Below are positions 2,343 to 24,391 of a DNA stretch of 64,000 bases, piece after piece (position 1 is the first letter of the stretch; every line of letters begins with the position of its first letter). The notes beneath the pieces are model-generated. The model saw only the letters and a program-made list of their open reading frames with translations. It was not told where the DNA came from and did no database searches. Source of the stretch: Burkholderia sp. S171 (GTDB lineage Bacteria > Pseudomonadota > Gammaproteobacteria > Burkholderiales > Burkholderiaceae); NCBI RefSeq assembly GCF_009766085.1, contig NZ_LMUF01000030.1, positions 311,632 to 375,631 on the forward strand, read 5' to 3'. The position numbers and the translations under genes were made by a program.

Positions 2343-2358
2343 AGCAATCGGAGCGCCC
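2343..2358 (-). promoter_or_regulatory. Weak sigma-54 promoter candidate before the lipoprotein pair
   Basis: Minus-strand reading GGGCGCTCCGATTGCT keeps the GG and GC dinucleotides and their spacing, plus TTGCT, but departs from TGGCACG at three places. It would start transcription about 70 nt before the 2262 ATG. Supported mainly by the stronger sites nearby. Confidence 0.4.
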
Positions 2359-2543
2359 GCGCATTTTGAAGGACGCAGCGAAATGAAGGGCAAAGAAATT
2401 TGCAAGAAATTGCAAATGCGGGGAACGTGGTGCGGAAAATGAAAACTGCCGGTGACAATCTCGCGGTCGAGTGAGTCGATGAGCCGCATCAGGGCCCATT
2501 GACTTCATCGACTTCATAAGCCTTATCGCGGCATTAGAGCGAT

Positions 2544-3632
2544 CTAGCTGTCCGCGCTTGTCGACGTTGACGCGTCTCCGTCGCCGCCTTCGTTCTCATA
2601 AGTGCCGAGGCGGTTGTACAGCGTCTTTAGGCTCACGCCGAGCGCCTTCGCGGCGCGACGTTTATCTCCCCCGCAATGCTTGAGCGTGCCGAGGATGATT
2701 TGTTTCTGCGCATCGGCGAGCGGCGTGCCGACCCACACGTTCATTGCGTCGCCTTGCGTGACCGGTTTTTTAACGCGCGAGGCCAGATGCGGATGCGCAA
2801 TCTCCACGGTTTTCTCAGCCAGGATGAACGCGCGATACACCGTGTTCTTCAACTCGCGCACATTGCCCGGCCATGAGTACGTGCGCAGCATGTCGAGCGC
2901 GCGTTTGCTGAAGGACTTGTTCGTCCCTTCTTGCGCGTTCATCTCGGAGAGGAAGTGCTGCGCGAGAAATTCGCGGTCGGTATCGCGTTCACGCAGCGGC
3001 GGCGCACGCAGCGGAAATACGGCGAGCCGATACATCAGGTCCTCTCGCAAGCCGTTCTCCTTCACCGCCACGATAGGGTCGCGATTGGTCGCCGCGATCA
3101 CGCGGACATCGGAGTGAATCAGGTCGCTGCCGCCCACGCGAAAGAACGTGCCTGTTTCCAGCGCACGCAGCAACTTGACTTGCCGAACCGGTGACATCTC
3201 CGTCACTTCATCAAGGAACAGCGTGCCGCCGTTCGCATGTTCGAAGTAACCGAGGCGTCCCTGCACGGCGCCCGTGAAGCTGCCTTTCTCGTGGCCGAAG
3301 AGTTCGGGTTCGATAAGGTTATCGGGAATCGCGCCGCAATTCACGGCGACGAACGGGGCGTCACGGCGGGCGCTTTGATCGTGGATCGTGCGGGCGATCA
3401 GTTCCTTGCCCGTCCCCGATTCACCGATGATCAACGCGGTGGCATCGGTGGCGGCCACGCGCTCGATCTGCGAGTACAACTCCATCATCACCGGCGATGA
3501 ACCGTACAGAAGTCCATACGATTTCAGCCCGGCAATTTCACCGGCGTTGCGTTTTTTTTGCGATGGCGTGTCGCCGGAGGCGACGGCCGGCGAGTCCAGA
3601 TCGATTGACGCCATGAGTCTTTTGTCCTGCAA
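2544..3632 (-). CDS. Sigma-54-dependent activator without a receiver or sensor domain
   Basis: A 362-aa bacterial enhancer-binding protein of the PspF-like short type. After about 45 unremarkable residues comes the AAA+ sigma-54 interaction domain: Walker A GESGTGKE (70-77), the sigma-54 loop GSFTGA (117-122), Walker B GGTLFLDE (135-142) and REDLMYRL (196-203). A Fis-type helix-turn-helix with SLKTLYNRL closes the protein. Known role: ATP-driven opening of sigma-54 promoter complexes from an upstream enhancer. No input domain is present, so control must be by expression level or a partner protein. The recognition helix is identical to that of the 5604 activator. An internal ATG (residue 7) is an alternative start. 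Confidence 0.93.
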
Positions 3633-4147
3633 ATGTTATTCGGGCGACAGCTCAGCCGCTGGGGGAAGACGAGGCGGCGCCGCAGGCCGAGGCGGTCACC
3701 GCCAGTCGGATGGCAGGCCCGTTGTGACTGCCGCTCGGGTGGGCGAAGCATCGTTCGACGGGCACTAGTTCGGTTGTTTCGCGAACCGGCGCTTGCATGC
3801 GGCTTATCTCATAAACCGTATTTAACCATCCGTAACGACTTAGCGCCAATGTGCTTTGCATGAGCTTTGGCCTTTCGTTGTCCTTTGTCGTTGACTTTGC
3901 GCGGCAATTAAATCCGCGTATCTCCATACGAATTGGAAATATTGGCCAGAGGCGGAAAGCTTCACCGATGCCGCCGGAAAATTACGTGTGCCGGGCGTAA
4001 TTGTTACGTGTTTGACGTGGCCCTCAGCCGCTGCGCTTTGCAGATAATCGACGTTTTGCCGTAGCGGCATACGTATTGAACGGGATGGCACGAAACCTGC
4101 GACTGGGGTGGCATCTGCAATGAAAGGCCGGTTTCCGGCACCAAGCC
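3633..4147. other. 515-bp intergenic region between activator and membrane-protein operon
   Basis: Divergent spacer. It holds a good sigma-54 site at 4086-4101. Further upstream (3970-4005) is an inverted ATTACG...CGTAAT pair and a twice-repeated TTACGTGT, which is a possible enhancer. A 69-codon minus-strand ORF (3652-3861) is present but has no clear ribosome binding site. Confidence 0.6.
4086..4101 (+). promoter_or_regulatory. Sigma-54 promoter candidate for the 4148-5221 genes
   Basis: TGGCACGAAACCTGCG: the -24 element TGGCACG is exact, spacing is exact, and the -12 element is CTGC instead of TTGC. Predicted transcription start near 4112, 36 nt before the first ATG. Confidence 0.65.
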
Positions 4148-4480
4148 ATGGAAGATTCCCTTCACTTCGAGATTCCCGTGCAACCGCGTGTGCGCCCCGT
4201 CCGTCGGGCTCGTGCGCCGCAGCGCGCGGCCGAGCGTCCGGAACTACTGACGGCCGAACCGATCAATCTTTATCACTGGGCCGCCGTCGCGCTGGTGACT
4301 GCGCTGATGTGCGTGGTGATGGCTTGCGCTGCCGGCACACCCGCACTGGCGCGGGCAGCGAGCGTCACGAGTGTCGTGTTTGCTTCGCTCGGTAGCGTGC
4401 TTGTGCTGGGCGCCATGCTGCGCGGGATGCGGCTGCGGCGTTCGGAACATCGGACGCCACTCAAGACGCGGACGCCGTGA
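4148..4480 (+). CDS. Small inner-membrane protein with two predicted TM segments
   Basis: 110 aa. An N-terminal charged, arginine-rich segment of about 38 residues (cytoplasmic by the positive-inside rule) is followed by two hydrophobic helices, roughly residues 44-64 (WAAVALVTALMCVVMACAA) and 72-94, and a short basic tail. No family recognised. It is the first gene after a sigma-54-type promoter and precedes a DUF883 protein, so it is probably part of the same envelope-stress group. Its ribosome binding site is weak. Confidence 0.65.
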   Translation: MEDSLHFEIPVQPRVRPVRRARAPQRAAERPELLTAEPINLYHWAAVALVTALMCVVMACAAGTPALARAASVTSVVFASLGSVLVLGAMLRGMRLRRSEHRTPLKTRTP

Positions 4481-4578
4481 TGCGGGTGCAGAAGTCGTCG
4501 CGTCCGGCGGCCGATCATGAGGCCAATTTATCAAACGTACGAAACGTATCAGACGTCAATGGCAAGGGGTTTCATAAC

Positions 4579-4896
4579 ATGAGTCAAACCACCGTCCAAA
4601 TGTCCTTGGGCAAGCAAAAGATCATCGAAGACATCAAGGTGTTGCTGAACGATTCGGAAGAACTCGTGCGGCTGAGCGCGTCGTTGCCGGCTGAAGGCGT
4701 GGACGCGTTGCGCACGCGTTTGCGTGACCATGTCGATGCAGCGCGCAATGCGCTTGAAGCAGCACAATCGAATGCGCAGGAGCGATACCGCGCCAGTCTG
4801 GACGGCACGGTGCAATACACGCGCGACAACCCCTGGCAAGCGCTTGGCATTGCAGCAGGGATCGGGTTTCTGGCGGGCATCCTGGTTTCGCGCTAA
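4579..4896 (+). CDS. DUF883 (ElaB/YqjD-type) membrane-anchored protein
   Basis: Start placed at 4579, preceded by AAGGGG; 105 aa. The body is a long amphipathic helix or coiled coil (residues about 10-75) and the end is a single hydrophobic C-terminal anchor (ALGIAAGIGFLAGILVSR), the layout of the ElaB/YqjD/YgaM family. Known family members are tail-anchored inner-membrane proteins that bind ribosomes in stationary phase and are RpoS-controlled in E. coli. Here the gene follows a sigma-54-type promoter one gene upstream, an interesting change of regulator. Confidence 0.88.
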   Translation: MSQTTVQMSLGKQKIIEDIKVLLNDSEELVRLSASLPAEGVDALRTRLRDHVDAARNALEAAQSNAQERYRASLDGTVQYTRDNPWQALGIAAGIGFLAGILVSR

Positions 4897-5603: not shown

Positions 5604-7007
5604 ATGCCACACGTATTGATTGTCGATGACGATCCCAGTACCCGCGAGGCACTAGCCGCGATCATCGGCGAAGACGGACTGACTACCGCGACGGCGGGTG
5701 ATCTGCGCGAAGCGCGGATTCAGCTCGTGCGCCAGACGCCGGACGTCGTGTTCACCGACCTCAAGCTGCCCGATGGTTCGGGCGTCGATCTGTTCGAGGA
5801 CCTCGATCCCCGATCCGGCGTGGAAATCATCGTCATTACCGGCCACGCGACGGTGGAGTCGGCGGTCAGTGCGCTCAAGATGGGCGCAACGGACTACCTC
5901 GTCAAACCCATCAACATGCAGCGCGTCAAGGCAATCCTGAGCCGCCTGCCGCGTCCTGGCGACCTCAAGGCCGAGATCGGCACCTTGCGTGGCGAGCTGC
6001 GCCGCATGGGCCGCTTTGGCCTGATGCTCGGCAATTCGCCGGCCATGCAAACGGTCTACGACCAGGTCGGGCGAGTGGCGCCCACGGCGGCGTCGGTATT
6101 GCTGATCGGTGAGTCGGGTACGGGCAAGGAAGTTGCCGCGCAGACGCTTCACGAGCTGAGCCTGCGCCGCAAGCATTCGTTTATTGCCGTGAACTGCGGA
6201 GCGATCTCGCCGAACCTGATCGAGTCCGAGATGTTCGGGCATGAGCGTGGCTCGTTCACCGGGGCGGATCGTCAGCACAAGGGTTACTTCGAACGCGCGA
6301 ACGGCGGCACGCTGTTCCTCGATGAAATCACCGAGATGCCGATCGAGTTGCAGGTGAAACTCCTGCGCGTGCTCGAGACCGGCATGTTCATGCGGGTGGG
6401 TACGACGAAAGAACTTGAGACCGACGTGCGCCTGATTGCCGCGACGAATCGTGATCCGGAGCAGGCTGTGCATGAAGGCAAGTTGCGCCTTGACCTGTAT
6501 CACCGGCTCAACGTTTTCCCGATTAACCTGCCGCCGTTGCGCGAGCGCGGCACGGACGTGGAGTTGCTCGGCCAGGCGTTTCTCGACGAGCTCAATTCAC
6601 GCTACAACACCAAGAAGACGTTTCCGGCTCCGGTGCGCGACATGCTCGCGTCGTATCCGTGGCCGGGTAATGTGCGCGAGCTGAAGAACTACGTGCAGCG
6701 CGCGTACATCATGTCGGGCGCCGAGTCGGACAGTACTGCGACCGTGCCGCTGCAGATCTCGATGGCGAAGCCATCGGCGGGAACGGCCGTCACTATTCCC
6801 TTCGGCACTTCGCTTGCGGAAGCGGACCGGCAGTTGATCCTCGCCACGCTTGAGCAATGCGGCGGCGTGAAGACGCGTGCAGCGGAAATTCTTGGCATCA
6901 GCCTGAAGACGCTCTACAACCGGCTGGTTGAATATGGCGATGACGCCGCGAACAAAGCGGCGCTAAGCGAAGCCAGTGAAGTAGGTGATGCCGACGCCGG
7001 GCGATGA
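5604..7007 (+). CDS. NtrC-type response regulator (REC-AAA+-Fis HTH)
   Basis: 467 aa. The receiver domain (1-120) has the acidic pocket D8-D10, phosphoacceptor D52 (FTDLKLPD), T79 and K101. The AAA+ domain has Walker A GESGTGKE (169-176), GSFTGA (216-221) and Walker B GGTLFLDE (234-241). The C-terminal Fis-type HTH contains SLKTLYNRL. Known role: phosphorylation by a sensor kinase drives oligomerisation and activation of sigma-54 promoters. No histidine kinase gene lies in the window, so it is an orphan. The AAA+ and HTH parts resemble the receiver-less activator at 2544, suggesting descent from one ancestor and possibly a shared DNA site. Confidence 0.95.
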   Translation: MPHVLIVDDDPSTREALAAIIGEDGLTTATAGDLREARIQLVRQTPDVVFTDLKLPDGSGVDLFEDLDPRSGVEIIVITGHATVESAVSALKMGATDYLVKPINMQRVKAILSRLPRPGDLKAEIGTLRGELRRMGRFGLMLGNSPAMQTVYDQVGRVAPTAASVLLIGESGTGKEVAAQTLHELSLRRKHSFIAVNCGAISPNLIESEMFGHERGSFTGADRQHKGYFERANGGTLFLDEITEMPIELQVKLLRVLETGMFMRVGTTKELETDVRLIAATNRDPEQAVHEGKLRLDLYHRLNVFPINLPPLRERGTDVELLGQAFLDELNSRYNTKKTFPAPVRDMLASYPWPGNVRELKNYVQRAYIMSGAESDSTATVPLQISMAKPSAGTAVTIPFGTSLAEADRQLILATLEQCGGVKTRAAEILGISLKTLYNRLVEYGDDAANKAALSEASEVGDADAGR

Positions 7008-7366
7008 GCTCTAGCGGTAACATCGCTGGCCTAATGGCTGGTAGCGGCTAAGGATTGGCCTTGTAGTGCGCACTGAGTGAGTCAAACTCAAACGCCCGTC
7101 TCATTGGGACTTCGAAAGATGTCCGCTTTGGACGGGCGATTTTCGTTGGTGCGCGCGAACGCAGCGCCGATAATGTCATCAGGCTTCCAGGTTGAGCGTT
7201 CCAAACACTTAAACCCGGGGCATGGCCCTTGCTGTGATTGAATGGCTTGGCTCGTGGGCGGTCCGTTCCCTTGGCCGCAGGAGTTCGAGCCGAGAGTCCT
7301 TGGCCGGATCGGCCGCTGCGCGCGATCCGAACGAGTGTCATCATCAAAAGATCCAGGGAGCCCGCC
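7008..7366. other. 359-bp intergenic region with a sigma-54-like site
   Basis: Includes the palindrome AGTGCGCACT near 7065, and the hairpin-forming TGTCC...GGACG near 7120-7135. A sigma-54-like site lies at 7218-7233. No coding capacity supported. Confidence 0.5.
7218..7233 (+). promoter_or_regulatory. Sigma-54 promoter candidate for the proline-rich small gene
   Basis: GGGCATGGCCCTTGCT matches the -24/-12 consensus at GGCA, G7 and TTGCT with exact spacing; mismatches are T1 to G and C6 to T. Predicted start about 7245, roughly 120 nt before the ATG at 7367. Confidence 0.5.
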
Positions 7367-7651
7367 ATGACCGATCTCGCCTCGCTTCAACGCCATCCCC
7401 GAAACGTTTTGCATGTGTGGCAAGTGTTGCGCGTTTCACGATCGCCGCATTTGATGCCGGTCCACGCGCAGACGCCGCAGCCGCCTGACCCGCCTTTTAA
7501 TCCCGACACACCGCCGTCGCCGTCACCGCAAGAACCCCCGGACACCATTCCCGATCCGACCCGCGAGCCGCCGTCACCGCCGAGTCAGCCAATTGGCGAT
7601 CCGCCTCCGGGACCAAACGAAACGCCGCATGTCTCGGGCACGTTGCACTGA
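7367..7651 (+). CDS. Proline-rich hypothetical protein
   Basis: 94 aa, chosen start has AGGGAG seven bases upstream. The first 35 residues are ordinary and moderately hydrophobic. From about residue 36 the protein is almost entirely Pro, Asp, Ser, Glu and Gln (PPDPPFNPDTPPSPSPQEPP) and is predicted to be disordered. No signal peptide is clear. Disordered low-complexity proteins next to otsA suggest a desiccation role, but this is inference. Confidence 0.6.
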   Translation: MTDLASLQRHPRNVLHVWQVLRVSRSPHLMPVHAQTPQPPDPPFNPDTPPSPSPQEPPDTIPDPTREPPSPPSQPIGDPPPGPNETPHVSGTLH

Positions 7652-8221: not shown

Positions 8222-8237
8222 AGGCACGTGTCTTGCA
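8222..8237 (+). promoter_or_regulatory. Sigma-54 promoter of otsA
   Basis: AGGCACGTGTCTTGCA differs from TGGCACG-N4-TTGCW only at the first base. Predicted transcription start about 8249, 43 nt before the otsA ATG. An inverted repeat ACAATTT...AAATTGT sits directly upstream (about 8193-8215). Confidence 0.78.
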
Positions 8238-8291: not shown

Positions 8292-9734
8292 ATGAGCAGA
8301 TTGATCGTGGTATCGAATCGTGTCGCGCCGATCCAGGAAGGCAAACCGGCTGCAGGCGGTTTGGCGATCGGCGTTCTGGACGCGCTGAAGGAGACAGGCG
8401 GTGTGTGGTTCGGCTGGAGCGGCGAGATTGTGGGTGAGGCCTCGGCGCCGGTCATCGAGAAGCGTGGCAACGTGACGTATGCGACCGTCGGGCTGACCCG
8501 GCGGGATTACGACCAGTATTACCGCGGCTTTTCCAATGCCACGTTGTGGCCGACATTTCACTATCGCAACGACCTGTCGCGCTTCGACCGTGAGGAATAT
8601 GCCGGTTACGCGCGAGTGAATGAGGCGCTGGCCAAGCAGCTCAAGCCGCTGCTCGAACCCGACGACATCATCTGGGTGCACGACTATCACCTGCTGCCGT
8701 TCGCGCAGGAATGCCGGGCGGCGGGCATCAAGAATCCGATCGGTTTTTTCTTGCACATCCCGTTTCCCGTGCCCGAGATCCTGCGGACGGTGCCACCGCA
8801 CGAAGAACTGATCAAGGCGATGTGCAGTTACGACATCGTGGGTTTCCAGACCGAGGCGGACAAGCAGTCGTTTGTCGATTACATCGAGCGCGGGCATTTG
8901 GGGCATCTCAGCGAAGACGGGATGCTGCAGGCGCATGGGCGCATGTTGAAGGTCGGGGCGTATCCCATCGGCATTTATCCGGACGCCATTGCAAAGGTCG
9001 CCGAGCAATTTTCGAATCGCAAGCCGGTCAAGAGCCTGCGCGATAGTCTGCGCGGGCGCAAGTTGATCATGAGCGTCGACCGGCTCGATTATTCGAAAGG
9101 GCTTGCCGAGCGTTTCCAGGCGTTCGAACGTTTGTTGTTGCACGCGCCGGGATGGCACGGGCGGGTATCGATGGTGCAGATCGCGCCGCCAACGCGCTCG
9201 GACGTGCAGACGTATCAACGCATTCGCCAGAACCTGGAAGGGGAGGCTGGACGGATCAACGGCCGTTTTGCGCAGCTCGACTGGACGCCGATCCAGTATT
9301 TGAACCGCAAGTACGATCGCAGTTTATTGATGGCGTTGTTCCGGTTGTCGCAGGTCGGGTATGTCACGCCGTTGCGCGACGGGATGAACCTCGTGGCAAA
9401 GGAATATGTGGCGTCGCAGGATCCGGCCGATCCGGGCGCCTTGGTGTTGTCGCAGTTTGCCGGCGCGGCGGATCAGTTGCCGGGCGCGCTGGTCGTCAAT
9501 CCGTTCGACTTGTCGCAGATGTCCGAGGCATTGGAGCGGGCGTTGTCGATGCCGCTTGCGGAACGCCAGGCACGTCACACGGACATGATGGCGCCGTTGC
9601 GCGAGAACAATCTGTCGGTCTGGCGTGACTCGTTCCTGTCTGATTTGCGCAGCGTCGCGACGGCTGCGTCGGCCACGAAGAAAGCGGTGCGGCAAGTGAC
9701 GGAGGCGAAACGCCCGGCGCGCGCAGTGAGCTAA
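8292..9734 (+). CDS. otsA: Alpha,alpha-trehalose-phosphate synthase (UDP-forming)
   Basis: 480 aa, a full-length GT20 glycosyltransferase. Transfers glucose from UDP-glucose to glucose-6-phosphate to give trehalose-6-phosphate, in the cytoplasm. Seen: the N-terminal SNRVAP and AAGGLA loop, HDYHLLPFA, GFFLHIPFP, the SVDRLDYSKG segment and the DGMNLVAKEY donor-site motif. The ribosome binding site is GAGGTGAAG. No otsB phosphatase is adjacent; instead a terminator follows directly, so dephosphorylation must be encoded elsewhere. Upstream is a near-perfect sigma-54 promoter, unusual since otsA is best known as an RpoS-dependent osmotic and desiccation gene. Confidence 0.97.
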   Translation: MSRLIVVSNRVAPIQEGKPAAGGLAIGVLDALKETGGVWFGWSGEIVGEASAPVIEKRGNVTYATVGLTRRDYDQYYRGFSNATLWPTFHYRNDLSRFDREEYAGYARVNEALAKQLKPLLEPDDIIWVHDYHLLPFAQECRAAGIKNPIGFFLHIPFPVPEILRTVPPHEELIKAMCSYDIVGFQTEADKQSFVDYIERGHLGHLSEDGMLQAHGRMLKVGAYPIGIYPDAIAKVAEQFSNRKPVKSLRDSLRGRKLIMSVDRLDYSKGLAERFQAFERLLLHAPGWHGRVSMVQIAPPTRSDVQTYQRIRQNLEGEAGRINGRFAQLDWTPIQYLNRKYDRSLLMALFRLSQVGYVTPLRDGMNLVAKEYVASQDPADPGALVLSQFAGAADQLPGALVVNPFDLSQMSEALERALSMPLAERQARHTDMMAPLRENNLSVWRDSFLSDLRSVATAASATKKAVRQVTEAKRPARAVS

Positions 9735-9829: not shown

Positions 9830-9845
9830 CGGAACGGGACTTGCG
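9830..9845 (+). promoter_or_regulatory. Sigma-54 promoter candidate for the acidic protein
   Basis: CGGAACGGGACTTGCG keeps GG, ACG and TTGC with exact spacing; three mismatches. Predicted start about 9857, 21 nt before the ATG at 9878. It sits just after the otsA terminator, so this gene needs its own promoter. Confidence 0.52.
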
Positions 9846-9877: not shown

Positions 9878-10225
9878 ATGAGTGGAAGCACATTGGACCC
9901 GGATGAAGAAGGTGGCGTGGAGGTGGGCAAAGGACATGGAACCGGCGCATTGGGGCCGAGCGATTCGTCCGATAGCGGCTCGGATGTGCAGGGCGAGAAG
10001 CGTTATCCGGGCGATATCGAGGACGAACTCGACGCGCACGCTGTCGGTCAGTCCGCCGGGGAACTGAACAGCGACACGGACCGGTATGGAACGGGCGAGA
10101 TGGCGTCCGCCGATGGTGACAACAATCTTGAGCCCGACTCGGACATCCTGCCGGACGGCGTGGAAGACGAGGCGCGCGCGATAGACGATGAAACTGCCGA
10201 CCCGGCCAGCGACGAAGACCTTTAG
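9878..10225 (+). CDS. Highly acidic hydrophilic protein
   Basis: 115 aa, start chosen because of a perfect AGGAGGTGAT Shine-Dalgarno. Very rich in Asp, Glu, Gly and Ser with no hydrophobic core (GGVEVGKGHGTGALGPSDSS), no Cys, few aromatics. I recall similar Burkholderia proteins being labelled 'chemotaxis protein', but nothing visible supports that. The composition resembles hydrophilins, which protect against desiccation. It sits between otsA and the BrkB gene, flanked by terminators on both sides. Confidence 0.75.
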   Translation: MSGSTLDPDEEGGVEVGKGHGTGALGPSDSSDSGSDVQGEKRYPGDIEDELDAHAVGQSAGELNSDTDRYGTGEMASADGDNNLEPDSDILPDGVEDEARAIDDETADPASDEDL

Positions 10226-10248
10226 AACCTTTCCGGAAACAGTGGCTG

Positions 10249-10284
10249 AAAAATGGCGCGCCCGTCCGGGCGCGCCATTTTGCG
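10249..10284 (+). terminator. Terminator after the acidic protein gene
   Basis: Perfect hairpin with stem aaaaTGGCGCGCCC / GGGCGCGCCAtttt and loop GTCC; A-rich before and T-rich after, so it may work in both directions. Confidence 0.85.
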
Positions 10285-10411
10285 TTTAAGGAAAGTAATA
10301 AGAAATACTAATCACCGAGGCGAAACAAACAACGCCAATCCGGGAGGCCACGGCCAAACCTCAAATCCGCGCTACCATCGCGAAAAGCAAAACTTGCGGG
10401 AGCGCCCAGCC

Positions 10412-11293
10412 TTGAACACTGCAGCAAAAGACCAAAGACTGAAGTCTTTCTGGTCGTGGATCCAGGACCCGATCGTCGGGTGGTCGCAGGACCACGGGCT
10501 GATGTTTTCAGCGGCGATCGCGTTTTTTGCTGCTTTCTCGCTGGCGCCGACGCTGGTGATCATCATCGCGGTGGCGAGCATTTTCTTCGGCGCGGATGCG
10601 GTCCAGGGGCGTCTGTTCGGCGAAATCGCGGGGATAGTGGGCGCCGACGCCGCGCATGGCCTGGAAGCGATCGTCGCCAACGCCTGGCATGCGGATATCG
10701 CGACGCGCACGGCGATCTTGTCGGGCGTGGGCGTGTTGATCGGAGCCTCGGCGACCTTTTCGTCGCTCTATACGGCGCTCAACGTGATCTGGCCTGCGCC
10801 CGTCACGAGCACTCGGGCCAGCATCATTGCCCTTCTGCGGGTCCGCGCCATTTCCTTCGCGTTCGTTCTGGGCGCGGCCTTGCTGATTGTTGCGTTGCTC
10901 GTACTCGATGCCCTCGTGGTCCTGGTTGGTCAGTGGGTGCTTGGCACGAACGGGCCGTCCTTCCTGATCGCGGCAATAGCGCAACGAGCCATTTCCCTGG
11001 TGATGATGGTGCTCGCGTTCGCGGTGCTGCTCAAATTCCTGCCCCGCGCGCGCATGCAATGGCGCGATGCCGCACTCGGCGCGGCGACCGCCGCGGTTTT
11101 GTTCGAAGGAGGAAAGCGGCTCTTCGCGTTCTATCTGCAGCACGCGGGCACCGCGAATACGTTCGGTGCGGCCGGGTCGTTCGCGATCATCCTGATGTGG
11201 TTGTACTACTCGGCGGCGGTGTTCCTGCTGGGCGCGGAAGTGTCGGCCATGGTCGCGCGAAGACGCACGCAACGAACTTCCGGCTGGCGATAA
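10412..11293 (+). CDS. YihY/BrkB family inner-membrane protein, TTG start
   Basis: The only start with a ribosome binding site (GCGGGAG, 9 nt upstream) is a TTG at 10412, giving 293 aa, the usual family length. Earlier frame codons run back into the preceding terminator and are not credible. About six hydrophobic helices are visible (first at FSAAIAFFAAFSLAPTLVII), with the family's FSAAIAFFAAFSLAP and GAAGSFAIILMWLYYSA segments. YihY/BrkB proteins are poorly understood inner-membrane proteins, once thought to be RNase BN and linked to serum resistance in Bordetella. Followed by a terminator shared with convergent rpoN2. Confidence 0.9.
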   Translation: MNTAAKDQRLKSFWSWIQDPIVGWSQDHGLMFSAAIAFFAAFSLAPTLVIIIAVASIFFGADAVQGRLFGEIAGIVGADAAHGLEAIVANAWHADIATRTAILSGVGVLIGASATFSSLYTALNVIWPAPVTSTRASIIALLRVRAISFAFVLGAALLIVALLVLDALVVLVGQWVLGTNGPSFLIAAIAQRAISLVMMVLAFAVLLKFLPRARMQWRDAALGAATAAVLFEGGKRLFAFYLQHAGTANTFGAAGSFAIILMWLYYSAAVFLLGAEVSAMVARRRTQRTSGWR

Positions 11294-11368: not shown

Positions 11369-12853
11369 TCAGCCGCGACGCAACTCCGCCGGCGGCACCT
11401 TCATCAAATGGCGATACTTCGCCACCGTCCGGCGCGCCACGATCACCCCCTGATCTGCAAGCATCTTGGCGAGGCTCACATCGGATAGCGGATCGGTGCT
11501 GCTCTCCTTCGCGATCATTTCCTTCAGCAGGGCACGCACGGCGGCAGCTGAGCAAGTACCGCCGCTTTCAGTGCTGAGTTCGCGCGGGAAGAAGTGCTTG
11601 AACTCGAAAATGCCCCGCGGCGTGGACATGTACTTGTTGCCCGTCGCGCGCGAGATGGTCGACTCGTGGAGTTCGAGTTCGTCGGCCACATCGCGCAATA
11701 CCAGCGGTTTCAATGCGATTTCACCGTAATCGAAGAACGCCTTCTGATGTGACACGATGCATTCCGCCACGCGCTGGATCGTCGTGAAGCGTTGCTGCGC
11801 GTTGCGGATCAGCCAGCGCGCTTCCTGCAATTGTTGAGCAAGCGGCGAGCGGCTTGCGCCCGCCGATTGCGCGAACAGTTCGGCGTACATGCGATGAATG
11901 CGCGCACGGGGCAGCACGGCGGGGTTGATCGTTACGACCCAATTCTTTTTCACCTGCCGCACGATCACGTCGGGCACTACGTAGTTATCTTCCGCAGCGC
12001 CGTAGTTCGCGCCCGGTTTGGGATCGAGTTTGCGCACGAGCGCGCAGGCAATGCGCAGTTCTTCCGCGCTGCAGCCAATCTTCTTCTGCAACTCGGCCTG
12101 CTCGCGACGCGCGAGCCGCTCGAGATGATGGGTGACGATCTCAAGCGCGACCGCGCGTCCCGGAGTTTCGGCGTCGAGCGCGTCGAGTTGCAGCGACAAA
12201 CATTCGGACAAGTTACGCGCGCCCACGCCCGGCTTGTCGAGCGATTGCACAAGCTTCAAAGCGATATTGAGTTCATCTTCTGAAAGCGCTGGCTCTATGT
12301 CCACGAGCTCCGACAGCTCCTGCAAATCCTGCCGCAAGTAACCGTCATCATCGAGTGCTTCGATAATGAGCTGCGCCACTGCACGGTCGCGATCATTGAT
12401 GGGATAGAGCCGCAACGTGTCATGCAGCGTTTCATGCAGCGAGGGTTCAATGCGTACCCAGTCGGCCGGGTCGGAGCCTTCGCCATCGCCGTTATTGCGC
12501 GTCGACGTCCGGCCGAACGGATCGGATGAAAACTCGTTCATCGAGTCCTCATGCGACTGCGAGTCGCTGCTGTCCGAAGTGTCGGCGCTACTTTCGGTAC
12601 TCATGGGCGCGTCCACAGGCGCAGTTTGATCGACGGGCGCAGGCGTGTCGGCCATGGAGTTGCCGTTGTCGGTGGACAGCGCATTGTCTTCCGCCTGCGT
12701 CTCGTCGTATTCGAGGAACGGGTTCGTATCAAGCGCGTTGCGCAATTCCTGCTGAAACTCAAGCGATGACAGTTGCAGCAGACGAACCGATTGCTGGAGG
12801 CGCGGCGTGAGCGCAAGACTTTGCTTGGTGCGTAGTTCGAGGGAAGGCGGCAT
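11369..12853 (-). CDS. rpoN2: RNA polymerase sigma-54 factor (second-copy type)
   Basis: 494 aa. Region I (about 1-50) carries the Gln/Leu-rich activator-response segment (TPRLQQSVRLLQLSSLEFQQ). Region II (about 50-130) is acidic. The core-binding region follows, then the HTH (VADELELHESTISRAT) and the RpoN box ARRTVAKYR (473-481) that reads the -24 element. The flanking genes are a BrkB protein and a BON protein, not lptB, hpf or ptsN as at the standard rpoN locus, so I infer that this is the second rpoN known in many Burkholderia. A near-perfect sigma-54 promoter precedes it, implying autoregulation. The '2' in the symbol rests on context alone. Confidence 0.93.
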   Translation of the reverse strand: MPPSLELRTKQSLALTPRLQQSVRLLQLSSLEFQQELRNALDTNPFLEYDETQAEDNALSTDNGNSMADTPAPVDQTAPVDAPMSTESSADTSDSSDSQSHEDSMNEFSSDPFGRTSTRNNGDGEGSDPADWVRIEPSLHETLHDTLRLYPINDRDRAVAQLIIEALDDDGYLRQDLQELSELVDIEPALSEDELNIALKLVQSLDKPGVGARNLSECLSLQLDALDAETPGRAVALEIVTHHLERLARREQAELQKKIGCSAEELRIACALVRKLDPKPGANYGAAEDNYVVPDVIVRQVKKNWVVTINPAVLPRARIHRMYAELFAQSAGASRSPLAQQLQEARWLIRNAQQRFTTIQRVAECIVSHQKAFFDYGEIALKPLVLRDVADELELHESTISRATGNKYMSTPRGIFEFKHFFPRELSTESGGTCSAAAVRALLKEMIAKESSTDPLSDVSLAKMLADQGVIVARRTVAKYRHLMKVPPAELRRG

Positions 12854-13166: not shown

Positions 13167-13182
13167 CGGCACGCTCTTTGCG
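13167..13182 (+). promoter_or_regulatory. Sigma-54 promoter of the BON gene
   Basis: CGGCACGCTCTTTGCG matches GGCACG-N4-TTGC exactly; only the outermost bases differ. Predicted start about 13194, leaving a leader of about 145 nt. Confidence 0.75.
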
Positions 13183-13254
13183 TCTGACCTATTACTACTC
13201 GCAGGGTCTTGGCGCTGCGGGTATGAAAACGAGCAGGGCTTTGCAGCAAAGATG

Positions 13255-13313
13255 CTGCGGCCGTACGAGGCGGCCTACGCTCAACTAACACAGCGGCAAT
13301 GCCGCAGTTTTTT
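13255..13313 (+). promoter_or_regulatory. Leader hairpins before the BON gene, possible attenuator
   Basis: GGCCG/CGGCC (13259-13275) and GCGGC-AAT-GCCGC (13293-13305) followed by TTTTTT can form local stems. CTGCGG (13255-13260) can instead pair with CCGCAG (13302-13307), which would exclude the U-tract hairpin. The stems are short, so this is tentative. Confidence 0.35.
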
Positions 13314-13337
13314 AAACCAACTAGAAGGAGAATTACT

Positions 13338-13670
13338 ATGAAGTCGACCCAAATCCTGAAGGCAGCCGGCAGTATCGCGTGTGTCGTGTTTGCGCTTAAC
13401 GTCAGTGCACAAACCGCTACAACGTCGACAGGCGCCTCCACGTCAATGGGTACCAAGGTCGATGACACGGCAGTCACGACCAAGGTCAAGGCCGAATTGC
13501 TGGGCGCGAAGAATGTCAAGTCCACGCATATCCATGTGAAGACGCGTGCGGGCGTGGTGTCGCTGACGGGTACGGTGCCGTCGGCAGAAGACAAGAGCGG
13601 CGCGGAAGACGTGGTGTCGAAGGTGGACGGCGTGTCGTCGGTGCGCAATCACTTGAAGATCGTAGAGTAA
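13338..13670 (+). CDS. Periplasmic BON-domain (OsmY-like) protein
   Basis: 110 aa from an ATG with AGAAGGAG. A signal peptide ends about SAQ (residues 1-25), a short Thr/Ser linker follows, and one BON domain fills residues about 40-110 (DDTAVTTKVKAELLG...VVSLTGTVPSAEDKSGAEDVV...VRNHL). BON domains are thought to bind phospholipid surfaces. OsmY in E. coli is osmotically induced and RpoS-dependent. Here the gene has a sigma-54 promoter and a strong terminator, so it is transcribed alone. Confidence 0.92.
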   Translation: MKSTQILKAAGSIACVVFALNVSAQTATTSTGASTSMGTKVDDTAVTTKVKAELLGAKNVKSTHIHVKTRAGVVSLTGTVPSAEDKSGAEDVVSKVDGVSSVRNHLKIVE

Positions 13671-14394: not shown

Positions 14395-14847
14395 TTATGG
14401 CTTGGCGGCTGCGTATTGGTCGCGCAGATCGCGAATACGGTCGTGATTTTCGATTACGCCCTGGTACTGGCGCTCAACCACGGCGCGTACATCGGCCGGC
14501 AATTCCTTGTCCAGCGCGTCGCGATAGTTTTTCTTCGCCACATCTTCCCCGCGCTCGCATTCCTCGAGGATTGCGTGATCGCTACGGTTGGTTACCGCCG
14601 ACTTTATGTCCACCCAGCCGCGATGCAGTGCTCCACCCACCGTGCCGCCGGTTTGCGGTTTTCCGCCCAGCCGCTGGACCACGTCCTGTAACTCATGCGC
14701 CCCGCGTGCACAATCTTCCGCGCGGCCTGTAAACAGTTGCTTTAGCGTCGCGTCCTTGGTGTCTTCAGCGGCCTTCCGGAAGCCCTTCTCGCCGTCCTTC
14801 GACGTTTCAACCAGATCGTTCAGTACCGATACGATGTTAGTGCTCAT
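14395..14847 (-). CDS. PA2169-family (DUF2383) four-helix-bundle protein
   Basis: 150 aa with AAAGGAGG ahead of the ATG. The sequence is helical throughout and matches the PA2169/DUF2383 ferritin-like pattern: SVLNDLVETSKDGEKGFRKAAED at the start, ECERGEDVAKKNYRDAL in the third helix. Known relatives (including YciF-type proteins) are stress-induced; their function is not established. A sigma-54-like promoter lies upstream, divergent from the promoter at 15043. Confidence 0.9.
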   Translation of the reverse strand: MSTNIVSVLNDLVETSKDGEKGFRKAAEDTKDATLKQLFTGRAEDCARGAHELQDVVQRLGGKPQTGGTVGGALHRGWVDIKSAVTNRSDHAILEECERGEDVAKKNYRDALDKELPADVRAVVERQYQGVIENHDRIRDLRDQYAAAKP

Positions 14848-14919: not shown

Positions 14920-14935
14920 CGCAACAGCTGTGCCC
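14920..14935 (-). promoter_or_regulatory. Sigma-54 promoter of the PA2169-family gene
   Basis: Minus-strand GGGCACAGCTGTTGCG matches GGCAC and TTGC with exact spacing; mismatches at T1, G7 and the last base. Predicted start about 14908, 61 nt before the ATG. Confidence 0.63.
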
Positions 14936-15042: not shown

Positions 15043-15058
15043 TGGCACGTGCTTTGCT
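15043..15058 (+). promoter_or_regulatory. Exact-consensus sigma-54 promoter
   Basis: TGGCACGTGCTTTGCT fits TGGCACG-N4-TTGCW at every position. Predicted start about 15070, 23 nt before the ATG at 15093. It rules out the earlier in-frame ATG at 15042, which would lie upstream of the transcript. Confidence 0.87.
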
Positions 15059-15423: not shown

Positions 15424-16029
15424 TTACGCACGCGGTTCCGCGAATTCCCGAACCGGCTCCGGTGGCTTGACCGGATCGAAATCGGCCCAGCGTCCGTTTC
15501 GCCATTGACCCGTTGCACGCTCGACTTCCATGCCGCCCGCATCGCGAAGAATGGCTGCTGCCTGCGCCTGCAATTCCGGGCCAACATGAACCGCGACTAC
15601 AACGCCGGAATGCCTCGCGTCGAGGGCGTTAGCCGAGCCATGATTTTCGGTGGTGGTCGCATCGGCGGCCGGGCGCTTGCCGGACCGCGCATGGCTCATT
15701 GCGCCCGCTAGCGATCCGACATACGCGCCTGCCCCGGCTGCGAGCACGGCGGCCAGCCAAGGCGTTTTGAACAATACGAAAACACCTGCACCCACAATTG
15801 CGCCGAGCACCGCGCCAATCGTGGCACCTTTGCCCGCTCCCTTGCCTGCGTCCTTCGCACCGGCATCGGCGTAGTGGTCTCCGCCTGTTTCAAGGCGCGC
15901 ATGCTGGCCGCTCGGGGCGACGTAAAAGAGCGTGACATCTTCTTCGAGAAATCCACCTGCAAAAAGACGCTGCGCTGCGACTTCGGCTTTGGGAAAGGTT
16001 TGAAACCGTCCTGCAATGATCAGGGACAT
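15424..16029 (-). CDS. Glycine-zipper membrane protein of stress-protein type
   Basis: 201 aa from the ATG at 16029 (GGAGGTC upstream). An N-terminal soluble alpha/beta part (MSLIIAGRFQTFPKAEVAAQ...EDVTLFYVAPSGQHA) resembles the general-stress YflT-like fold. It is followed by a Gly-rich double membrane segment (GKGATIGAVLGAIVGAGVFVLF...AAVLAAGAGAYVGSLAGA) and another alpha/beta stretch (GVVVAVHVGPELQAQAAAIL). Last gene of the probable 17740-15424 operon. Exact function unknown. Confidence 0.75.
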   Translation of the reverse strand: MSLIIAGRFQTFPKAEVAAQRLFAGGFLEEDVTLFYVAPSGQHARLETGGDHYADAGAKDAGKGAGKGATIGAVLGAIVGAGVFVLFKTPWLAAVLAAGAGAYVGSLAGAMSHARSGKRPAADATTTENHGSANALDARHSGVVVAVHVGPELQAQAAAILRDAGGMEVERATGQWRNGRWADFDPVKPPEPVREFAEPRA

Positions 16030-16097
16030 GAGGACCTCCGGGAAGCGATTGTTTCGATGAACCGCGTCAATGAACCGATGACGGACGAAGCGCGTGG

Positions 16098-16454
16098 TCA
16101 ATCCGGTTCCATGCCCGCCACGCGGAACAGTCCGCTACGTAATACGACGCTCTCTCCGCCATTGCTGTCAAGCGCTTCGGCGCAGACCGAGCGGATTCGC
16201 GCGCAGCCTCGTTCGAACGCCTGGAGCAAATCGTCCTCCCGCGCCGACGCAGCGCCGAAATGATCCTCGAGTGCTTCGGCGGAAATGGAACACACCACCG
16301 CTTGGCCGTCGATCAGCGCGACGAAATGAACGGCGAGATCGTCGCCGTCATAGGTGGGCGCCGCGTCGGAAAACTGGATGTGCATGGTCGAGTCCTCATA
16401 GGCTGGCCGAGGTTGCGGAACGATAGAGGCGAGCGAAGCGGAAGCGGTCGTCAT
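16098..16454 (-). CDS. DUF1488 family protein
   Basis: 118 aa from the ATG that overlaps the upstream stop (ATGA) and is preceded by GAAGGGAG inside the upstream gene. An alternative start at 16385 would begin directly at the DUF1488 domain (MHIQFSDAAPTYDGDDLAVHF...SAEALEDHFGA). DUF1488 proteins are small and uncharacterised. The coupling to the DUF4142 gene makes the longer form plausible, but its first 23 residues are low-complexity. Confidence 0.85.
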   Translation of the reverse strand: MTTASASLASIVPQPRPAYEDSTMHIQFSDAAPTYDGDDLAVHFVALIDGQAVVCSISAEALEDHFGAASAREDDLLQAFERGCARIRSVCAEALDSNGGESVVLRSGLFRVAGMEPD

Positions 16455-17134
16455 GATGTCACTCCCTTCAGCTTGGCGAGCTGCTGCGCCATTGCATAGT
16501 GATGCTTGATAATAGGAAGCGCCTTGGCGGCAACATTTTTGAGTGGCGCATTATTGCCGTCCTTGCTCTCGGTGCTGAATACCGCCACTGCTTTCCGATG
16601 GCCGCCCACCGCCACCTGTACGATGTAAGCCTTGTCGAAGTCTTTGCCATGCAACGACTCCAGGCTTCCCGTCACCGATGCATCCGCGCTCGCCGCCGCC
16701 GTGATGCCTTGCCGCTTTGCAACAACATCGAGGTTGCGCGCAAGACGGGTGTGATCCGCGATCATCCGTTGCGCAAAGCTCTTGACGTCCGCATCCGACG
16801 AATTCGTCAACGCCAGCTTGCTGGCCGCAATTTCGGTTGCGCCCGCAGTGCCGGCGTCCTGCACGAACTGTTGATCGGCCGGCGATAATTTGGCCGGGGA
16901 AGGCGAGGAGGCCGCCATGGGCGCAGGCGTCGCCGCTCCGTCCGACCCGGGACGTGCCGGCGCCACGGCATTGTTGTTTTGCGCGCTTGCATTCATCGAC
17001 GCAAAACTTGCACCGAGCGTGAGCGCTGCGAGCGCTGCGAACACACCAACGCTGCGCCGCGACATTGGGAGCGCTATCCCAAGACCCAAAGCGTGCAAAC
17101 CTTGGCGACTATCCGTCAGCATCGATTTTGTCAT
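16451..17134 (-). CDS. DUF4142 periplasmic protein
   Basis: 227 aa from the ATG at 17134 (GGAGAA upstream). A long N-terminal region with signal segment (SVGVFAALAALTLGASFASMNASAQ), an Ala/Pro/Ser linker, then the DUF4142 ferritin-like four-helix domain (FVQDAGTAGATEIAASKLAL...KSFAQRMIADHTRLARNL...). The function is unknown. An earlier ATG lies within a duplicated 13-bp element (ATTGTCTATGGAG, two copies at about 17145-17176) that also supplies the ribosome binding site. Confidence 0.87.
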   Translation of the reverse strand: MTKSMLTDSRQGLHALGLGIALPMSRRSVGVFAALAALTLGASFASMNASAQNNNAVAPARPGSDGAATPAPMAASSPSPAKLSPADQQFVQDAGTAGATEIAASKLALTNSSDADVKSFAQRMIADHTRLARNLDVVAKRQGITAAASADASVTGSLESLHGKDFDKAYIVQVAVGGHRKAVAVFSTESKDGNNAPLKNVAAKALPIIKHHYAMAQQLAKLKGVTS

Positions 17135-17185
17135 TCGGTTCTCCATAGACAATCGGGACTCCATAGACAATAGGGAATCCTCCGC

Positions 17186-17740
17186 TCAAGCGGCTTTCTT
17201 CCGCTCGCTGAGCGCTTCGATAATGACTTTGTTGAACGCGGGAAGATCGTCTGGCTTGCGACTCGTGATGAGATTGCGATCGCGATGCACTTCCTCATCG
17301 ACCCATGTGCCGCCGGCATTGCGGATATTGTCCTGCAGCGTCGGCCAGCTCGTCAGCGTCCGGCCCGAGACAATGCCCGCGGAGATCGGCAGCCAGCCGC
17401 CATGGCAGATCACGGCGATGGGTTTGCCGTCCTTATCGAATTGCTTCACGATGCTTTGCGCCTTCGCATCCACGCGGATTGCGTCGCCGTTGACCACGCC
17501 TCCCGGCAACACGACTGCGTCGTAATCGGATGCACGCGTCTGGTCGAAGGTGGCGTCGACCTTGACCTTGTCGCCCTTGTCGGTGTGCACGAAGCCCTGG
17601 ATCTGTCCCGGCTTTTGCGAGATCACATGCACTTGGGCGCCGGCAGCTTTCAGCGCCTTTTGCGGTTCGACCAGTTCGGCTTGCTCGAAGCCATCGACAG
17701 CGAGAATTGCGACCTTGTAACCGTTGAGAGAATCAGCCAT
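17186..17740 (-). CDS. DJ-1/PfpI family protein (YhbO-like)
   Basis: 184 aa with AAGGAG before the ATG. The fold's catalytic set is visible: E19 in DGFEQAEL, the nucleophile elbow with C112-H113 in AVICHGGWLP, and the late HRDRNLITSRKPDDLPAF. Known family members act as chaperones, proteases or protein deglycases in stress; E. coli YhbO is RpoS-dependent. It heads an operon with DUF4142, DUF1488 and glycine-zipper genes and has a strong sigma-54 site 66 bp upstream. Confidence 0.93.
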   Translation of the reverse strand: MADSLNGYKVAILAVDGFEQAELVEPQKALKAAGAQVHVISQKPGQIQGFVHTDKGDKVKVDATFDQTRASDYDAVVLPGGVVNGDAIRVDAKAQSIVKQFDKDGKPIAVICHGGWLPISAGIVSGRTLTSWPTLQDNIRNAGGTWVDEEVHRDRNLITSRKPDDLPAFNKVIIEALSERKKAA

Positions 17741-17805: not shown

Positions 17806-17821
17806 AGCAAAGGGTGTGCCT
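17806..17821 (-). promoter_or_regulatory. Sigma-54 promoter of the pfpI-DUF4142-DUF1488 operon
   Basis: Minus-strand AGGCACACCCTTTGCT differs from consensus only at T1 and G7, with exact spacing. Predicted start about 17794, 54 nt before the ATG. Confidence 0.72.
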
Positions 17822-21670: not shown

Positions 21671-21699
21671 GCGCGGCTTATTTTCGGGTCACGTTCGGG

Positions 21700-23295: not shown

Positions 23296-23323
23296 GCGCC
23301 TGCGCGAGCTGCGCGTGACGTTC

Positions 23324-23713
23324 CTACGAGCGGTCTTTCCCGAACGGATGAGCCGGTTTCCATTGCGGGACCATGCGCGGCATGGGTGCAATGGACGTCG
23401 CTGGGTCGGGAGTGAGTTCGGGCGCGGTATCGAGTGGCCGGTGGCCGGCTTCGTGCGCATCGATCTGCAGATACAGCCGATGAACCGTCTGGATCTGCGT
23501 GTGGGAAAGATGCGAATTTCGCGCGACAAGCGCAAGCCGCTCGCGCCAGTAAGTAGGCGGCATGATGGGGCACAACGCGTCGTCGATCAATGAACGCCGC
23601 AGCACCAGTTCGAGGTGCGTCAACTCCTGGTCTGCGAATAGCGCAGAGGGCGCGCCTTGCAGTTTCATGTCGATGGTTGAGTCCATCAATGCGTAACGGC
23701 AGCGCGGAAACAA
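23324..23713 (-). CDS. Hypothetical protein
   Basis: Up to 129 aa; a start at 23686 (MDSTIDMKLQG) is also possible and neither has a good ribosome binding site. The middle is helical (DQELTHLELVLRRSLIDDALCPIMPP...LSHTQIQTVHRLYLQIDAHEAG), the tail Pro-rich. No domain recognised. Confidence 0.5.
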   Translation of the reverse strand: MFPRCRYALMDSTIDMKLQGAPSALFADQELTHLELVLRRSLIDDALCPIMPPTYWRERLALVARNSHLSHTQIQTVHRLYLQIDAHEAGHRPLDTAPELTPDPATSIAPMPRMVPQWKPAHPFGKDRS

Positions 23714-23756
23714 ACTTTAGCGAACGCCCGGTCGGGACAAACCCTTAACAGGCGGC

Positions 23757-24155
23757 CTATTGAACGGGTCGCGCCACCGCCCGGTCCAGATCGGCGCGCG
23801 CCCGGTTCACCTTGCGCTCCCAAGCCGCTATGTTCAGCTGATCCGTGCCCTTTTTCCGGGCGCGGGCCAACTCCGCTTCCCAGTCACGCAACCGGTTCCT
23901 GGCCTCGGCCACGGCACTGTCGTGCCGTCTCAACGCGTCTGCACGTTTTTGCGCAATCGCGTCGGGCGTGCATTCGGCGTTGGTCTTGTTGAGTTCGGCT
24001 TGCAGGGCGTCGAGTTGCGCTGAGTTGTCCTGGTTCAGCGCCGTAGCCATCTGCCTTTCGAGAGTCTGGCGATGGGCATCGCAGGCATCGGTTTCCTGCG
24101 AGGCGTGAGCGGTCGACAAACACAGGCTTAAGGCGACGACGGCAAGCAATTTCAT
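23757..24155 (-). CDS. DUF1090 family periplasmic protein
   Basis: 132 aa from the ATG at 24155. A signal peptide (MKLLAVVALSLCLSTAHA) precedes a long, highly charged helical region with one Cys pair (ETDACDAHRQTLERQM, TNAECTPD), typical of DUF1090 (YqjC-like). In E. coli, yqjC sits with the DUF883 gene yqjD. Function unknown. Upstream is a short direct repeat TTGGGCAGGG, two copies near 24180-24200. Confidence 0.85.
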   Translation of the reverse strand: MKLLAVVALSLCLSTAHASQETDACDAHRQTLERQMATALNQDNSAQLDALQAELNKTNAECTPDAIAQKRADALRRHDSAVAEARNRLRDWEAELARARKKGTDQLNIAAWERKVNRARADLDRAVARPVQ

Positions 24156-24375
24156 AGCGGAATCCGTGGCTGACGAGATTGGGCAGGGTTGGGCAGGGGA
24201 CAAACGGTATTTAACCTGTACAAGGTGTCCGCTTATTCGGCTGGACGGTTTATTGAATAACGATCGTGCATCCCTTCGTCCCGGCCAAGGTCGGCGTATT
24301 TTAACGAGTTTATGGGGACCGAAGGGGCCAATACGACGGCCATGCGTCCGGTCACTCACGCTAAGTCGCATCATG

Positions 24376-24391
24376 CGGAACGCGTCTTGCG
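24376..24391 (+). promoter_or_regulatory. Sigma-54 promoter candidate for the 24435 gene
   Basis: CGGAACGCGTCTTGCG has the same pattern as the 9830 site (CGGAACG-N4-TTGCG), with exact spacing. Predicted start about 24403, 32 nt before the ATG. Confidence 0.42.

What the first reader, a model, noticed from the sequence alone, without database searches (positions are those of the whole stretch)
2343..24391. A clustered RpoN2 regulon of stress-type genes
Seen: matches to the sigma-54 -24/-12 consensus with exact spacing, positioned 20-150 nt before starts, at 4086, 7218, 8222, 9830, 12896, 13167, 14920, 15043, 17806 and more weakly 2343 and 24376. They serve otsA, DUF883, BON, PA2169, PfpI-DUF4142-DUF1488 and small hydrophilic genes. 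Known: homologues of several of these are RpoS-controlled in enterics. Inference: this lineage has handed a general-stress/desiccation programme to a second sigma-54 and two local activators. I know of no description of such a cluster as a unit.
Basis: partly seen in the sequence, partly recalled or inferred. Interest (0 to 1): 0.92.

Follow-up and report, generated by a model that had tools for sequence, protein, structure and literature searches.

The report
Stress regulon of a second sigma-54
In this Caballeronia-like soil bacterium, a second sigma-54 gene sits among stress-type genes such as trehalose synthesis, many of them preceded by conserved matches to the sigma-54 promoter sequence, so this spare sigma factor and two neighbouring activators likely run a stress programme of their own.

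Summary
The observation largely holds. Nine of the eleven listed sites are supported; 2343 lies inside a reading frame and 24376 is weak and untested. The window's five best matrix scores are all in this cluster, which has 8 sites of at least 12 bits where a sample of the genome predicts 0.92. In up to 80 relatives the sites stay while the leaders diverge (rpoN2 80 of 80, PfpI 54 of 56, otsA 34 of 37; shuffles about 1%), with exact spacing. In Paraburkholderia the activator/otsA half lies apart from rpoN2, yet sites persist. The response-regulator activator occurs in all 25 RpoN2 genomes tested outside Caballeronia, within 25 kb of rpoN2 in 11. Unlinked Ku carries a site in 18 of 21 genomes. 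Published work in Burkholderia pseudomallei found no katE expression in an rpoN2 mutant, so one stress target is known; I found no description of the regulon. Not shown: that RpoN2 rather than RpoN1 uses the sites, that the two activators act here, or that RpoS was replaced. Three of 15 genomes without RpoN2 have an otsA site.

The parts
11369..12853 (-). rpoN2, second sigma-54 factor (494 aa)
   Evidence: Pfam AID, CBD, DBD all matched; one of two in the genome; own clade; NCBIfam best model NF009118
12896..12911 (-). -24/-12 site before rpoN2 (TGGCATGACTGTTGCT), predicted autoregulation
   Evidence: 18.2 bits; >=12 bits in 80 of 80 relatives of both genera, shuffles 1%
2544..3614 (-). enhancer-binding protein without receiver domain
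   Evidence: Pfam Sigma54_activat, HTH_8; GSFTGA at residue 111; 81-85% identical in 11 of 11 Paraburkholderia-group genomes
5604..7007 (+). NtrC-type response-regulator enhancer-binding protein
   Evidence: Pfam Response_reg, Sigma54_activat, HTH_8; GSFTGA at 216; in 14 of 14 RpoN2 genomes of ten other genera, within 25 kb of rpoN2 in 11, and in 11 of 11 Paraburkholderia-group genomes, on another contig
4086..4101 (+). -24/-12 site before the 4148-DUF883-4952 genes
   Evidence: 12.7 bits; >=12 in 29 of 33 relatives, shuffles 1%; before DUF883 in 6 of 9 Paraburkholderia-group loci
4148..4480 (+). small unknown gene, first of the DUF883 set
   Evidence: no Pfam hit; matches in 35 of 80 loci
4579..4896 (+). 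DUF883 gene (ElaB/YqjD-like; that relation is recalled)
   Evidence: Pfam DUF883, DUF883_C
7218..7233 (+). -24/-12 site before small gene 7367-7651
   Evidence: 14.7 bits; 6 of 7 usable relatives; similar site after the response-regulator gene in 8 of 11 Paraburkholderia-group loci
8222..8237 (+). -24/-12 site before otsA
   Evidence: 16.1 bits; 34 of 37 relatives; 9 of 10 Paraburkholderia-group loci where otsA is not near rpoN2
8292..9734 (+). otsA, trehalose-6-phosphate synthase
   Evidence: Pfam Glyco_transf_20; TIGR02400 above cut-off
9830..9845 (+). -24/-12-like site before 9878 and BrkB genes
   Evidence: 8.6 bits only; >=12 in 6 of 56; but GCGGAAC and CTTGCG are conserved blocks in the alignments
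9878..11293 (+). small acidic gene 9878-10225 and BrkB-family membrane gene
   Evidence: no Pfam hit for 9878; Virul_fac_BrkB
13167..13182 (+). -24/-12 site before BON gene
   Evidence: 12.2 bits; >=12 in 46 of 78 relatives (33 of 43 Caballeronia group), shuffles 1%
13338..13670 (+). BON-domain gene (OsmY-like)
   Evidence: Pfam BON; NCBIfam OsmY model matched below its cut-off
14920..14935 (-). -24/-12 site before PA2169-family gene
   Evidence: 10.6 bits; >=12 in 19 of 71, but GGCACR and TGC aligned in all 13 rows shown
14395..14847 (-). PA2169-family four-helix-bundle gene
   Evidence: Pfam DUF2383; TIGR02284 above cut-off
15043..15058 (+). -24/-12 site before small gene 15093-15341
   Evidence: 19.0 of 19.1 bits; 23 of 25 relatives
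17806..17821 (-). -24/-12 site before the PfpI-DUF4142-DUF1488-15424 genes
   Evidence: 14.5 bits; 54 of 56 relatives in both genera
15424..17740 (-). PfpI, DUF4142, DUF1488 and a glycine-zipper-like gene, predicted operon
   Evidence: Pfam (the glycine zipper is below cut-off); same order in both genera
   Evidence: 8.9 bits here; >=12 in 21 of 35 Caballeronia-group relatives, 2 of 10 Paraburkholderia-group

Best explanation
The region is a cluster of stress-type genes around a second sigma-54 gene, many of them preceded by conserved -24/-12 sites, and it is likely a stress regulon driven by RpoN2 together with the two neighbouring enhancer-binding proteins. Shown: the sites, their conservation and exact spacing, and the recurrence of sigma factor, activator and sites across genera. 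Inferred: RpoN2 binds these sites as a closed complex; the response-regulator activator, phosphorylated by an unlinked kinase, and its receiver-less partner open it with ATP; the site before rpoN2 makes a positive feedback loop, so the set comes on as a switch. Inferred too: the products (trehalose synthase, BON, PA2169, PfpI, DUF883, and unlinked Ku) protect resting or drying cells.
For: Density above the genome's own background. Sites conserved upstream of site genes and not of neighbours: response regulator 0 of 36, other activator 1 of 37, MFS 0 of 36, TetR 0 of 35, the 15424 gene 0 of 67 (the full list is in the report). Spacing: GGCAY-N5-YTGC in 263 of 316 leaders of seven site genes, 2 at N4, 0 at N6, 22 at N8; 6 of 388 control leaders at N5. 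Sites kept where otsA and the activators are on another contig than rpoN2. The response-regulator activator is present in 14 of 14 RpoN2 genomes from ten other genera, 11 of them within 25 kb of rpoN2, and in 11 of 11 Paraburkholderia-group genomes. Twelve 18-20 kb pieces from ten further genomes hold 81 sites against 17.0 in shuffles. Unlinked Ku has a site in 18 of 21 Caballeronia-group genomes, shuffles 0.6%; Ku and ligD lie in the RpoN2 cluster of Burkholderia multivorans. [quoted passage not shown] pseudomallei rpoN2 mutant while nitrogen and amino acid use was unchanged (PMC4745423).
Against: Two genomes without RpoN2 but with a close otsA (G149, G147) have its site, and G075 has one too (3 of 15), so RpoN1 may serve it. 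The activator occurs without RpoN2 in 4 of 8 genomes. The recognition box of both sigma factors is the same. Of 22 genomes with RpoN2, 9 have no otsA site within 250 bases, among them all three tested of group g35. PA2169 and 9878 sites pass the score cut in only 19 of 71 and 6 of 56. No shared activator-binding motif was found, and my control for that search was faulty. Relatives are not independent of one another. No expression data for this species.
Confidence: 0.7

Rival explanations
1. The sites are true sigma-54 promoters but are used by RpoN1, or by both sigma factors alike; rpoN2 is near them only because it is one more target, and the local activators set the specificity.
For: Same recognition box; otsA site present in two close genomes without RpoN2; activator present without RpoN2 in 4 of 8 genomes.
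Against: RpoN2 and the activator co-occur in 14 of 14 genomes of ten genera and are close in 11; loss of rpoN2 alone removed katE expression in B. pseudomallei (PMC4745423).
Confidence: 0.22
2. The genes are sigma-54 targets for nitrogen or carbon starvation like ordinary NtrC-type targets, and 'stress' is only the label of the families.
For: Both activators belong to the NtrC class; other strong sites of the genome precede porins (by eye) and zinc-peptidase genes.
Against: Cluster content (trehalose, BON, PA2169, PfpI, DUF883; Ku and ligD in Burkholderia) is not nitrogen-related; the B. pseudomallei rpoN2 mutant used nitrogen and amino acids normally (PMC4745423, abstract).
Confidence: 0.15
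3. Chance: in a GC-rich genome a short consensus matches by accident and the reader picked the matches near starts.
For: The loose consensus over the window is at chance level, 87 against 80.8; two of eleven listed sites do not hold; one other 20-kb piece of the genome is as dense (L135).
Against: Conservation, spacing and genome-background tests.
Confidence: 0.02

Closest known systems
Burkholderia pseudomallei RpoN2 and katE (PMC4745423)
   Same: Second sigma-54 on the second chromosome; a stress gene, katE, depends on it and has a predicted RpoN box; katE is BPSS2214 and rpoN2 BPSS2218 (tags from PMC13192269)
   Different: One stress target shown; no cluster of promoters, activators or conservation in the parts I read
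Duplicated rpoN in Ralstonia solanacearum (PMC4371752, passages)
   Same: rpoN2 on the second replicon, not redundant with rpoN1
   Different: The title and passages give roles to rpoN1, not rpoN2; no stress regulon
RpoS general stress regulon of enterics (recalled)
   Same: Homologues such as otsA, osmY (BON) and elaB/yqjD (DUF883) are RpoS targets there
   Different: Here the sites are -24/-12, a promoter type that needs an ATP-driven activator
RpoN1/RpoN2 pairs of Xanthomonas (PMC7970052, listing and abstract start) and Rhodobacter (PMC3162934, passages)
   Same: Two sigma-54 with partly separate roles
   Different: Linked there to motility, virulence and growth, or described by promoter differences, not to a stress cluster
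RpoN of Campylobacter jejuni (PMC3196706, listing and abstract start)
   Same: Sigma-54 contributes to stress resistance where stress sigma factors are missing
   Different: Not a dedicated second copy in a stress cluster

Membership tests
sigma-54 factor (RpoN) | activator-interacting, core-binding and DNA-binding domains with the ARRTVAKYR box | tested here: met
   TIGR02395 above cut-off
sigma-54 factor (RpoN) | orthologue of the genome's other copy, RpoN1 | tested here: not met
   separate clade, support 100/99 for its 11 rows; NCBIfam is mixed: best NF009118 passed, NF004595 passed, NF004598 not passed
sigma-54 promoter | GG at -25/-24 and GC at -13/-12, fixed spacing | tested here: met
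sigma-54 promoter | transcript 5' end about 12 bases after the GC, lost in an rpoN mutant | not testable with these tools
   no expression data
bacterial enhancer-binding protein | AAA+ domain with GAFTGA-type loop and Fis-type HTH | tested here: met
   GSFTGA in both
bacterial enhancer-binding protein | binding site upstream of the target promoters | tested here: inconclusive
   only a GTAA-N3-TTAC palindrome before gene 4148 (97% of 33 relatives); control faulty
general stress regulon | induced by unrelated stresses through one sigma factor | not testable with these tools
   gene content only

The most novel reading that the evidence does not exclude
Much of the Burkholderiaceae runs a general stress and resting-cell programme through a dedicated second sigma-54 with its own activator pair: an ATP-gated, autoregulated switch that took over targets held by RpoS elsewhere, including trehalose synthesis, BON proteins and double-strand-break joining by Ku.
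Probability: 0.4. Interest if true: 0.88.

Novelty: new variant of a known kind. Interest (0 to 1): 0.72.

Why it matters
Two rpoN copies are common in beta-proteobacteria with several replicons (PMC4371752, passage), but I found few roles for the second copy in them. A conserved set of sites with two named activators makes its role testable in a few strains. In B. thailandensis RpoS rises only modestly in stationary phase, and the authors name RpoE and RpoN as possible players (PMC12322963, passages); this is a concrete candidate. In an insect-symbiont strain one of three otsA copies is raised 12-fold in the host, and otsA matters for early colonisation (PMC10100943, passages); whether it is this otsA was not checked.

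Tried and rejected
Sites 2343 and 24376: dropped. Rfam search of the first 26 kb: one match far below its cut-off, no known RNA. Shared activator-binding motif: none; the reversed-sequence control was symmetric and therefore useless. First Ku scan ignored strand and gave 6 of 21; corrected to 18 of 21 (the other three score 11.9, 11.1 and 9.6; Ku of an outside genus, L284, has none). The BON leader (13193-13337) folds somewhat better than shuffles (z -2.8; 3 of 200 as good) and has a terminator-like hairpin; not pursued. Assigning sites to RpoN2 or RpoN1 by sequence: not possible, same box. Loss of sites with loss of RpoN2: not clean. Extra sigma-54 copies of G041 and G057, from other families, were not counted as RpoN2: the first falls outside the clade, the second is a long branch at its base. 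Protein-database, structure and fold searches were not used. Literature: ten searches.
Full report
What the window is. RpoN2 is up to 98% identical to that of Caballeronia species near C. sordidicola; the genome has 8.49 Mb in 78 contigs and two sigma-54 genes. The window's copy is 49% identical to the other. In a tree of 35 sigma-54 proteins it groups with copies from Caballeronia, Paraburkholderia and large plasmid records of Burkholderia (11 rows, 100/99), apart from the RpoN1 type; the root is a midpoint, and one long-branched row (G057) sits at the base. NCBIfam's best model is the subfamily NF009118, well above its cut-off; one RpoN model is passed and another is not.

The sites against chance. 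A loose consensus over the whole window is not enriched (87 against 80.8), so the claim rests on strength and place. With an approximate matrix (recalled consensus TGGCACG-N4-TTGCW) the five best scores of 64 kb all fall in the cluster upstream of genes. GGCACN5TTGC occurs 113 times in the genome (control 88); 6 are within 11 kb here, where 0.19 are expected per 14.2 kb. The stricter GGCAYGN4TTGCW occurs 40 times (control 21), 4 of them within 8 kb here; 0.07 expected per 14.2 kb. I left out of that sample four pieces fetched because of their hits; one, L135, has 7 sites of 13 bits or more in 20 kb, so this is not the only dense place.

Conservation. I took 80 loci round rpoN2 (43 of the Caballeronia group, 37 of the Paraburkholderia group), found matches to the window's genes, and scored 250 bases upstream wherever the match began within 25 residues of the start (counts worked back from the printed fractions). 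With a site of at least 12 bits: rpoN2 80 of 80, PfpI 54 of 56, otsA 34 of 37, 4148 29 of 33, 15093 23 of 25, 7367 6 of 7, BON 46 of 78, PEBP 21 of 35, PA2169 19 of 71, 9878 6 of 56. Shuffles gave 0-2%. Genes without a claimed site: 15424 0 of 67, DUF1488 1 of 68, 7819 0 of 37, other activator 1 of 37, MFS 0 of 36, response regulator 0 of 36, DUF883 0 of 36 (it follows 4148), 4952 2 of 36, TetR 0 of 35, 1196 0 of 33, 13872 0 of 21, 21700 0 of 12, DUF4142 2 of 10, 1708 1 of 10, BrkB 0 of 7, GGDEF 0 of 5. In alignments of up to 13 rows the -24 and -12 blocks stand out in leaders that have otherwise diverged, including PA2169 and 9878 (output of 38 was cut; block lists). Spacing is exact: GGCAY-N5-YTGC in 263 of 316 leaders of seven site genes, against 2 at N4, 0 at N6 and at most 22 (N8) at any other spacing from N2 to N9; nine control genes gave 6 of 388 at N5.

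Synteny and a split regulon. rpoN2, BON, PA2169, 15424, DUF1488, DUF4142 and PfpI keep their order in most loci of both genera; the two activators, DUF883, otsA, MFS and PEBP are near rpoN2 mainly in the Caballeronia group. In 11 of 11 Paraburkholderia-group genomes both activators exist as a neighbouring divergent pair at 89-90% and 81-85% identity, with otsA near in 10 of 11, on another contig than rpoN2 (contig lengths); in P. xenovorans rpoN2 is on the 3.36-Mb chromosome 2 and the pair on a 4.9-Mb contig. There otsA has its site in 9 of 10, DUF883 in 6 of 9, and a site follows the regulator gene in 8 of 11; controls: regulator 0 of 11, other activator 0 of 11, 4952 0 of 11, MFS 0 of 10, 7819 0 of 10, 1196 0 of 7, PEBP 2 of 10. 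Caballeronia reads as if the rpoN2 module had been set between otsA and MFS of this second module (inference).

Wider family. Of 90 genomes of the family drawn by the tool, 44 have an RpoN2 match of 520 bits or more, in 11 genera by my count; 19 have only lower matches and 27 none. In 14 of 14 RpoN2 genomes that I tested from ten genera the response regulator is present, and in 11 it lies within 25 kb of rpoN2; of 8 genomes without RpoN2, 4 have it. Twelve pieces of ten of these genomes, chosen for holding rpoN2 or the activators, have 81 sites against 17.0 in shuffles. The RpoN2 regions of a B. cenocepacia and a B. multivorans plasmid record have 12 sites each in 29 kb against about 1; in B. 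multivorans 11 of the 12 stand within about 150 bases upstream of an annotated gene by my reading, in a cluster with BON, DUF4142, DUF892, Ku, ligD, PfpI, DUF1488 and treY. There the activator pair lies about 19 kb from rpoN2, at 60% and 51% identity.

Targets away from the cluster. Ku in this genome lies on another contig; a site stands 97 bases before it, and in 18 of the 21 Caballeronia-group genomes with Ku, this one included (23 searched). Of 36 strict genome-wide sites outside the cluster I looked at the frames after 28 and, picking by eye, sent 10 to Pfam: Na/H exchanger, glutathione transferase, nucleotidyl transferase of the GlgC/GlmU kind, zinc alcohol dehydrogenase, transglycosylase-associated protein, DUF2252, zinc peptidase, AI-2E transporter, and two without a hit. 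These are candidates only.

Against the reading. Sites within 250 bases of the best otsA: 13 of 22 genomes with RpoN2 (13 of the 17 whose otsA is over 70% identical), 3 of 15 without, and 0 of 10 paralogues. Two of the three exceptions (G149, G147) are close relatives without RpoN2; G147 keeps only remnants of the gene. All three tested genomes of group g35 have RpoN2 and no otsA site. So the promoter type is firm, the sigma factor is inferred.

Literature. PMC4745423: abstract, section 3.3 and the first part of the discussion (rpoN2 mutant of B. pseudomallei, nitrogen and amino acid use unchanged, no katE expression, RpoN box predicted). Passages only: PMC13192269, PMC12322963, PMC4371752, PMC3162934, PMC10100943, PMC12117332, PMC2753556. 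PMC5979394: a term look-up without hits. Others: listings. In my ten searches I saw no paper describing the cluster, its promoters or its activators; most subscription papers are not held.

Noticed in passing
window 13193-13337: The BON leader folds better than shuffles (z -2.8) and holds a hairpin followed by six T; part of it is conserved in near relatives. Possible leader RNA or attenuator.
   Followed up: partly
L135 (G000:C11:314001-334000): Another dense run of strong sigma-54 sites (7 of 13 bits or more in 20 kb), before ATP-grasp-like, transporter-like and lysine-rich frames (named by eye).
   Followed up: partly
L133, L134 (G000:C2:165001-205000): Four strong sigma-54 sites in 26 kb, two of them before porin-like genes (named by eye).
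   Followed up: partly
G034, G035: Small Caballeronia-group genomes: G034 has an intact RpoN2 while its RpoN1 match is broken by stops; G035 has only the RpoN1 type.
   Followed up: no
G147:C2:2607218-2607523: Two short remnants of rpoN2 in a genome without the gene that still has the otsA site.
   Followed up: no
L312, L315, L316, L317, L320, L322 upstream of rpoN2: In other genera the site before rpoN2 is often TGGTACG or TGGTATG rather than TGGCACG.
   Followed up: no
window 3997-4007: Palindrome GTAA-N3-TTAC upstream of gene 4148, present in 97% of 33 relatives, between the two divergent genes; possible activator site.
   Followed up: partly
G041:C5:135911-144625 (L176, L177): In a genome of another family an extra sigma-54 gene lies 6 kb from a 57% identical relative of the response-regulator activator, though that sigma factor falls outside the RpoN2 clade.
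   Followed up: partly
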